From Mitsuaria chitosanitabida ATCC BAA-476 = NBRC 102408 (GTDB taxonomy: Bacteria > Pseudomonadota > Gammaproteobacteria > Burkholderiales > Burkholderiaceae_C): DNA of 64,000 bases. Below are positions 63,017 through 63,810 of this stretch, piece after piece. The position numbers and the translations under genes are program-made. The stretch spans positions 1 to 64,000 of the forward strand of contig NZ_BCYP01000026.1 in the NCBI RefSeq assembly GCF_001598255.1, in the 5' to 3' direction. Within the stretch, counting starts at the first letter, position 1, and every line of letters begins with the position of its first letter. Below the pieces are notes generated by a model that was given only the letters and a program-made list of their open reading frames with translations, did not search any database and had not been told where the DNA came from.

Positions 63017-63556
63017 TCAGCGCAGCCGGACGGTCGCCTGCGCGTGCGCCGCGGCGTGGGCCTGCGCCAGCAGCGTGCCCGAGGACATCGCCGAGGCCGG
63101 TGTCAGCATGGCGGCCTGGGTCGCCGCGCTGACGACCATCGCCGCCGTCGCGGTCCAGGGCAGGCCGACGCGAGCTTCCGCCAGCAGCCGCGCGGGGATG
63201 GGCTCCTCGTGGACGTGAGGGAGGATGGTCAGGTACTCGTCCGCGCGGGCGAGCTCGATGTCCTCCTCCGCCATGCCGACGAACACGTGCGCGAAGCCGC
63301 GCTCGATCGCGTCCAGCGCCGCCTCGGTCGCGCGGCGCCAGCGCTTGACGGCCGCCACCTCGGACCGCGACGCGGTGTCGGGCACCGGCCAGCGCGGGTC
63401 GCCCCCGGTCACCGCCAGGCAGGCCTGGAAGGACTCGACCACGCCTTGCGGCCCGCCCAGCCGGGCGTCCAGCACCTGGGTCGCGATCGTCCGCGCCAGA
63501 TCGTGCTGGTGATACGGGACCATGACCCGTTCAAGAATGACTTCGTAGCGTCGCAT
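63017..63556 (-). CDS. uncharacterised protein under a LexA-type operator
   Basis: A 179-aa protein beginning MRRYEVILERVMVPYHQHD. It has no signal peptide; a helical, charged first half (about 45-110) and an Ala-rich hydrophobic C-terminal region (WTATAAMVVSAATQAAM) that may be a membrane or packing segment. I recognise no family. AAGGAAGG before the ATG supports the start. The promoter spacer contains an almost ideal SOS box, so the gene should be induced by DNA damage. Known SOS functions cannot be assigned from the sequence. Downstream end converges with the VOC gene. Confidence 0.7.
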   Translation of the reverse strand: MRRYEVILERVMVPYHQHDLARTIATQVLDARLGGPQGVVESFQACLAVTGGDPRWPVPDTASRSEVAAVKRWRRATEAALDAIERGFAHVFVGMAEEDIELARADEYLTILPHVHEEPIPARLLAEARVGLPWTATAAMVVSAATQAAMLTPASAMSSGTLLAQAHAAAHAQATVRLR

Positions 63557-63620
63557 GACGGTTCCTTCCTTGGCGTCGCTGCCTCGAGCGCCGCCTGTCG
63601 TTGTGGCTGGGGGAGGAAGG

Positions 63621-63649
63621 AGAATACTGTACGAACATACAGTATTCAA
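63621..63649 (-). promoter_or_regulatory. LexA (SOS) box lying inside a sigma-70 promoter
   Basis: TACTGTACGAACATACAGTA (63625-63644) fits the SOS box CTG-N10-CAG, and the palindrome extends to 9-bp perfect arms (63622-63630 with 63639-63647). Read leftward, TTGAAT (63644-63649) and TATTCT (63621-63626) are exactly 17 bp apart, so the box fills the spacer between -35 and -10. Confidence 0.85.
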
Positions 63650-63810
63650 TCCGTCGCGTGTCCCGCGAAGGGGCAAGCTGCCATGGCCTGTCAGCAGGGC
63701 GGACACCGAGGGACAGGGACGCGCCGAGAGGCCCTTCAAGGGGCTGGCGGCGGTGGTCCCCGGCCGGCCGTCGGTACGCCCGCCGATCGCTGTCCTGACG
63801 ACGGGACCGT

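What the first reader, a model, noticed from the sequence alone, without database searches (positions are those of the whole stretch)
63017..63649. Unknown gene with an almost ideal LexA box inside its promoter
The SOS palindrome has 9-bp perfect arms and exactly fills the 17-bp spacer between plausible -35 and -10 elements. The 179-aa product resembles nothing I recognise, so it is a candidate new DNA-damage response protein.
Basis: partly seen in the sequence, partly recalled or inferred. Interest (0 to 1): 0.7.

Follow-up and report, generated by a model that had tools for sequence, protein, structure and literature searches.

The report
Orphan SOS gene with conserved LexA box
A bacterial gene of unknown function carries a textbook DNA-damage switch in its promoter, and switch and protein are kept across the related genomes examined, so it is very probably a genuine but undescribed DNA-damage response gene.

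Summary
On the minus strand a 179-codon gene (63556-63017) is preceded by a LexA box (63644-63625, no mismatch to TACTGT-N8-ACAGTA; arms 10 bp, not 9) that fills the 17-bp spacer between TTGAAT and TATTCT. Chance gives about 0.0002 exact boxes per window. The genome has one lexA, and LexA-type boxes at lexA, recA, imuA, a PA0069-type radical-SAM gene, a 36-aa membrane peptide and a paralogue.

All 16 genomes of the genus (Roseateles) have the orthologue and a CTGK-N8-MCAG box at the same place; only 5 of 16 have both perfect half-sites. The gene is under purifying selection.

The protein matches no Pfam, NCBIfam, PHROG or PADLOC family. Its core is predicted confidently (pLDDT 93) and Foldseek finds no solved counterpart. 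It is a distant member of an unnamed ~100-aa family of Burkholderiaceae; in the loci read, LexA boxes mark only this branch.

New here: a second palindrome, CTGMCA-N5-TGGCAGC, 41-54 bp upstream of the box in 15 of 16 orthologues, recurs at uvrA, egtB and ada-type loci.

Verdict: almost certainly a LexA-repressed SOS gene. What the protein does is not shown; I favour a small partner-binding effector with a labile tail.

The parts
63017..63556 (-). CDS, 179 aa, ATG start at 63556, stop 63017-63019; LexA-boxed gene of an unnamed family
   Evidence: orthologues in 16 of 16 genus genomes; median dN/dS 0.215 in the core over 15 of the 16 orthologues
63215..63556 (-). codons 1-114: folded core, two strands around five helices, conserved through the wider family
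   Evidence: AlphaFold2 pLDDT 93.0, pTM 0.84 for residues 1-118; profile-profile match to the wider family, 94% probability
63020..63214 (-). codons 115-179: low-confidence Ala-rich tail with a conserved GLPWxATAA segment
   Evidence: pLDDT about 46-76 per block of 10; alignment A1; KD19 maximum 1.19 in the window protein, 1.09-2.17 over 15 orthologues
63625..63644 (-). LexA box TACTGTATGTTCGTACAGTA (full palindrome 63622-63647, 10-bp arms)
   Evidence: LexA-type box at this position in 16 of 16 orthologues
63644..63649 (-). putative -35 element TTGAAT
   Evidence: read from sequence; inferred, no transcript data
63621..63626 (-). putative -10 element TATTCT, 17-bp spacer
   Evidence: read from sequence; TATTCT in 14 of 16 orthologues
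63562..63571 (-). Shine-Dalgarno-like AAGGAAGGAA
   Evidence: read from sequence; AGGA just before the start in 16 of 16 orthologues
63677..63694 (-). second conserved palindrome CTGACA-N5-TGGCAGC upstream of the -35; site of an unidentified regulator (inferred)
   Evidence: 15 of 16 orthologue promoters, 41.5-53.5 bp from the LexA-box centre; 3 exact sites in the whole genome, control 0

Best explanation
This is a LexA-repressed SOS gene. A LexA dimer bound to the box occupies the spacer between -35 and -10 and keeps RNA polymerase off; when RecA filaments on damaged DNA trigger LexA self-cleavage, the promoter opens and a burst of the 179-aa protein is made (inferred from the anatomy and from the established LexA mechanism). 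The protein is most likely a small soluble effector that works by binding a partner (a replication, repair or division protein; no partner is indicated) through its conserved helical core, with an Ala-rich C-terminal tail that may make it short-lived or tether it. A second conserved palindrome upstream of -35 suggests that another regulator acts on the same promoter. Shown: gene, box, conservation, purifying selection, family, confident predicted core. Inferred: repression, induction, partner binding, role of the tail, second regulator. My estimate for the LexA part is about 0.9; for 'partner-binding effector' about 0.4; for any one named partner under 0.15. The confidence given is for the LexA-repressed SOS gene.
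For: Perfect box in the spacer. A lexA in 16 of 16 genus genomes, its own operator CTGTATAAAAATCCAG or CTGGATAAAAATACAG; recA boxes in 16 of 16; exact or near-exact boxes in the own genome at imuA, a PA0069-type radical-SAM gene and recA. recA, lexA and imuA belong to the published beta-proteobacterial SOS core (PMC3323433, passages only); whether the radical-SAM gene is that paper's splB was not checked. A matrix built only from 7 distinct lexA and recA sites picks the box as the single best window in each of 16 loci (11.1-34.4 bits; random 20-mers reach 10 bits about 17 per million). dN/dS median 0.215 core, 0.398 tail. Core model pLDDT 93.0, pTM 0.84. On a tree of 36 rows (8 of the 16 orthologues in it), 11 of 12 rows on this side of a 99/97 branch are boxed and 24 of 24 on the other side are not.
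Against: No expression or binding data. 4 of 16 orthologues (G004, G009, G010, G015) have CTGG-N8-CCAG, both half-sites off consensus; two of these (G009, G010) and G012 (CTGG/ACAG) score under 14 bits, so LexA control may be weak there or another protein may read the palindrome. At up to 2 mismatches box counts in the genome are below the control. No functional hint for the protein from family, fold or neighbours: within 1.5 kb no neighbour is shared by more than 8 of 16 loci (a VOC/glyoxalase-like gene, name by eye), and the wider family is not boxed. The tail of the window's own protein is not hydrophobic enough to be called a membrane anchor.
Confidence: 0.85

Rival explanations
1. SOS cell-division inhibitor: the core and the Ala-rich or hydrophobic tail hold a division protein at the membrane until repair is done, as SidA, DidA, YneA or SulA do elsewhere.
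For: In 5 of 15 orthologues the tail reaches KD19 of 1.5 or more. Division inhibitors are a common kind of lineage-specific damage gene (recalled; PMC4211646 on DidA, and PMC6051672, seen as search listings with the start of the abstract only). Whether the genome has another division inhibitor such as SulA was not searched.
Against: The window's own tail is at 1.19 and modelled with low confidence; the divergent orthologue in G008 has no such tail; a 36-aa one-helix peptide behind a LexA box in the same genomes looks the better candidate for this role.
Confidence: 0.2
2. The palindrome is read mainly by another regulator (one that prefers CTGG-N8-CCAG), and LexA is secondary or irrelevant.
For: 4 of 16 orthologues have symmetric CTGG/CCAG arms, both sides changed together.
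Against: The window's own box is perfect for LexA; lexA's own operator has one CTGG half-site in 16 of 16 genomes; the box of the 36-aa gene is CTGT/CCAG in G009, G012 and G015 (boxes of the same sequence exist in G004 and G010, but the peptide was not checked there). The shift looks like a clade-wide LexA drift.
Confidence: 0.08
3. Degenerate mobile-element or prophage cargo that carried its SOS box with it, now of no use to the host.
For: Boxed relatives sit as second gene in two-gene cassettes (L018, L019, L042/L050); near L019 there is an ORF that looks like a recombinase by eye, not tested.
Against: The gene itself is in 16 of 16 genomes and under purifying selection; no relative was found in the phage, plasmid and viral collections.
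Confidence: 0.05

Closest known systems
LexA/SOS regulon of beta-proteobacteria (CTGT-N8-ACAG; lexA, recA, imuA-imuB-dnaE2, uvrA, an inducible polymerase, also splB, hypA and hypB; PMC3323433, passages read)
   Same: Same operator and same promoter overlap; recA, lexA and imuA carry such boxes in this genome
   Different: This gene is not among the named core. Whether it equals their hypA or hypB could not be checked (locus tags are in a supplement not read); hypA is said there to have no homologues outside beta-proteobacteria with multiple chromosomes and hypB to be exclusive to Burkholderia
Unnamed ~100-aa family of Burkholderiaceae (MSYTLxLY...FGPHRYMGDAxYEI), found here
   Same: Homologous core: hhalign 94% probability, 27% identity over 83 columns
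   Different: No LexA-type box within 400 bp upstream in 24 of the 25 loci read, out of 72 matches outside the genus; no Ala-rich tail in those aligned; function unknown
SidA / DidA / YneA / SulA damage-induced division inhibitors (recalled)
   Same: Would work at the same step of the response, if the first rival reading is right
   Different: The protein matches no Pfam or NCBIfam model and has a folded core of about 114 residues

Membership tests
LexA (SOS) regulon | LexA-type operator overlapping the promoter | tested here: met
   0 mismatches, fills the 17-bp spacer of a predicted promoter
LexA (SOS) regulon | a cognate LexA and RecA in the genome, with the same operator type at their own genes | tested here: met
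LexA (SOS) regulon | operator conserved upstream of orthologues | tested here: met
   CTGK-N8-MCAG in 16 of 16; strict CTGT-N8-ACAG in 5 of 16; CTGG/CCAG on both sides in 4 of 16
LexA (SOS) regulon | recA-dependent induction by DNA damage; LexA binding | not testable with these tools
   needs RT-qPCR and gel shift
Unnamed Burkholderiaceae ~100-aa family | homologous core domain | tested here: met
Any named SOS effector family held in Pfam or NCBIfam | match to the family model | tested here: not met
   no Pfam or NCBIfam model at E up to 10
Damage-induced division inhibitors of the SidA/YneA type | membrane-spanning helix | tested here: inconclusive
   KD19 1.19 in the window protein, 1.09-2.17 over 15 orthologues
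Damage-induced division inhibitors of the SidA/YneA type | blocks division when made | not testable with these tools
   needs overexpression

The most novel reading that the evidence does not exclude
The gene is the LexA-controlled branch of an undescribed protein family with a fold not seen in solved structures, a lineage-specific DNA-damage effector, and its promoter is read by two systems: LexA, and a second, unidentified regulator at CTGMCA-N5-TGGCAGC that also marks uvrA and ada/alkA-type loci and so may run a parallel DNA-damage regulon in Roseateles.
Probability: 0.2. Interest if true: 0.75.

Novelty: new member of a known kind. Interest (0 to 1): 0.5.

Why it matters
Lineage-specific SOS genes hold much of the undescribed biology of the bacterial DNA-damage response. 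This one is present in every genome of the genus searched, has a confident model for which no solved counterpart was found, and stands beside a second conserved promoter element, so both its function and a possible second regulator can be tested in an environmental bacterium. The evidence makes it a good candidate, not the discovery of a new mechanism.

Tried and rejected
Family searches with the protein and its relatives gave nothing of use: Pfam, NCBIfam, PHROGs, PADLOC (scattered matches, best E 0.00059, to one or at most five members). PDB by sequence: best E 0.51, glutathione S-transferase, taken as chance. Fold searches: no match with E up to 0.001 in PDB or BFVD; one uncharacterised Caudovirales protein, A0A6J5P539 (E 0.14, prob 0.92), is too weak to use. 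Phages, plasmids, viral contigs: no relative.

In-frame stops noted in 8 of 16 orthologues were checked: the open frame runs from the start to one stop at the C-terminus, the alignment having run past it; no broken gene.

Neighbours (1.5 kb on each side): no constant partner; the wider family sits near rnd-like and DUF6172-like genes (names by eye or recalled) in a minority of loci.

For the second palindrome I looked up the DriD and Cada2 motifs (PMC12340889, PMC10957082, passages): no fit in what I saw. Near its other sites no LexA-type box lies within 400 bp in the loci scanned (8, a ninth, L146, off-centre there; 10, L146 included), except one relaxed CTGG/CCAG match at L165.

Paper searches for Roseateles with SOS response, and Mitsuaria with LexA, gave 0 and 1 paper, the one not on point; others. 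PMC7739468 was seen in passages and not used.

Limits: one search scored only 9 candidates per genome, so 64 of 399 is a lower bound, and its weakest rows (E near 1e-4) may be chance. The tree has long branches. The matrix rests on 7 distinct sites. Four of the ten own-genome sites, all with two mismatches, were not examined.

Full report
What is there. The window is 70% GC and lies in a 5.8-Mb genome. On the minus strand an ATG at 63556 opens a 179-codon frame that ends at 63017, with AAGGAAGGAA in front. Further upstream the minus strand reads TTGAAT, 17 bases, TATTCT. The 17 bases are the inner part of a perfect palindrome, GAATACTGTA-N6-TACAGTATTC.

Is it chance? The core TACTGT-N8-ACAGTA is expected 0.00023 times per window and 0.021 times per genome at this composition. 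The genome has four exact sites: at imuA (ImuA model passed), at this gene, in front of a 36-aa ORF after a fur-like gene, and in front of a two-gene unit whose second gene is a paralogue of this one. One site with one mismatch lies at a PA0069-type radical-SAM gene and one with two mismatches at recA. Four more two-mismatch sites were not examined. At up to two mismatches the count (10) is below that of the reversed control (26), so weak sites mean nothing on their own. lexA has CTGTATAAAAATCCAG.

Conservation. All 16 genus genomes searched have the gene. I read the promoters of all 16. Each has CTGK-N8-MCAG, its centre 45-79 bp before the start codon in 15; in the divergent G008 copy the 20-mer starts 83 bp before it. 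Five have CTGT/ACAG, five CTGT/CCAG, two CTGG/ACAG, four CTGG/CCAG. A matrix from the 7 distinct lexA and recA sites of the genus, without this gene, finds this place as the single best window in each locus of about 3.5 kb, 16 of 16, with 11.1 to 34.4 bits. Against the reading: of the four CTGG/CCAG sites and G012, three score only 11-14 bits. For the reading: the lexA operator has one CTGG half-site in 16 of 16 genomes, and the box of the 36-aa gene is CTGT/CCAG in three of the nine genomes in which I saw it, which looks like a change of LexA preference and not loss.

The protein. No named family. Fifteen orthologues (the divergent G008 copy left out) give a median dN/dS of 0.215 for codons 1-114, 0.398 for the rest, 0.212 for residues 124-150 with the GLPW segment. 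AlphaFold2 gives two strands around five helices (one of four residues) for residues 1-118, pLDDT 93.0 and pTM 0.84 with 36 sequences; the tail is uncertain. Foldseek finds no PDB entry with E up to 0.001.

Relatives. A first profile search gave 5 of 250 genomes; a second, with distant rows added, 64 of 399 genomes and 31 of 141 genera, only 9 candidates per genome being scored. Profile-profile comparison of alignment A1 (17 rows, one of them the paralogue) with A4 (23 rows of the wider family) gives 94% probability. Of 72 matches outside the genus I read 25 loci, L050-L074: one (L050) has a LexA box, 331 bp upstream and in front of a short first gene; the other 24 have none within 400 bp (L073 has a relaxed match at -466). 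On a tree of 36 rows, with 8 of the 16 orthologues, one branch with 99/97 support separates 12 rows (11 boxed; the exception, L020, lacks a readable start) from 24 unboxed rows. Long branches make the finer order unsure. So in the loci read, LexA control is a trait of this branch: the Roseateles gene, its paralogue in two-gene cassettes (L018, L019) and the L050 copy.

A second element. In 15 of 16 orthologue promoters (not G008) CTGMCA-N5-TGGCAGC lies upstream of the -35, its centre 41.5 (9 loci), 42.5 (2), 51.5 (3) or 53.5 bp (1) from the centre of the LexA box. The distances cluster about one helical turn apart, which suits a protein that touches RNA polymerase from one face; but the longer spacings may stem from only two or three events. 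The own genome has 3 exact sites, control 0. The 16 genomes give 48 table entries, that is 42 distinct places since six symmetric sites count twice; 15 are this promoter and 27 lie elsewhere; the control gives 5. Of the 31 loci fetched, 12 are this promoter. The other 19 fall into groups: four between uvrA and a GGDEF/EAL gene (models matched in L142), four at egtB (matched in L139), four between an EmrB-like exporter (matched in L137) and a fimbria-like gene (by eye), three at an unidentified gene, two entries of one site at an NRPS-like gene (by eye), one beside a DUF72 gene and one beside an Ada/AlkA-type gene. So only a minority are repair genes. In 9 of the 15 promoters the left arm keeps an A that breaks the pairing, and no T-run follows, so an RNA hairpin or terminator is unlikely (inference). 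The regulator is unknown.

How it probably works. By the established LexA mechanism (PMC3323433, background passage), a dimer in the spacer hinders RNA polymerase; activated RecA leads to LexA cleavage and the gene is expressed. What the product then does is not shown. A small, strongly conserved helical core without a recognised enzyme family, and a faster-changing Ala-rich tail, fit best with a protein that binds a partner and is then removed; a division inhibitor is the main rival (0.2).

Comparison. It meets the sequence features of an SOS gene; induction is untested. It belongs to no named protein family in the libraries searched. The published beta-proteobacterial set has two hypothetical genes, hypA and hypB; identity with either could not be checked.

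Noticed in passing
own genome C1:174798-174971 (L021); L096, L098, L100, L103, L106, L107, L108, L109: A 36-aa one-helix peptide (MQVLKQ..WSSLNNADAWVLCIGILSCLGLATGVLG; KD19 2.18) behind a LexA box set between TTGAAT or TTGACT and a -10-like element; found in 9 of the 16 box loci read, in the own genome next to a fur-like gene. In the family sample of 200 only the own genome matched. A candidate tiny SOS membrane protein, SidA- or TisB-like in size (recalled).
   Followed up: partly
window 63677-63694 and L137-L167: Palindrome CTGMCA-N5-TGGCAGC upstream of this gene in 15 of 16 orthologues and at uvrA, egtB, exporter and ada/alkA-type loci; possible second regulon.
   Followed up: partly
L018 1444-2231 (own C45), L019, L042/L050, L101: Two-gene LexA-boxed cassettes: a variable first gene and a relative of this protein as second gene; L101 has a box and a first gene like that of L050 (by eye) but another second gene.
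   Followed up: partly
G004, G009, G010, G012, G015 (L012-L016, L083-L087): One group of genomes shows CTGG half-sites in several LexA boxes and has FRSANAAEEHL where the window's group has FKSANAAEEHL in LexA (some other genomes share FRS): possible drift of LexA preference.
   Followed up: no
L090-L094 (G015, G010, G014, G012, G009): Short stand-alone frames of 78-113 codons with a LexA-type DNA-binding domain only, in 5 of 16 genomes; possible competitors or regulators.
   Followed up: no
L095 (G004): A second, diverged LexA-like protein with its own box TACTGTACAACCGTACAGTA.
   Followed up: no
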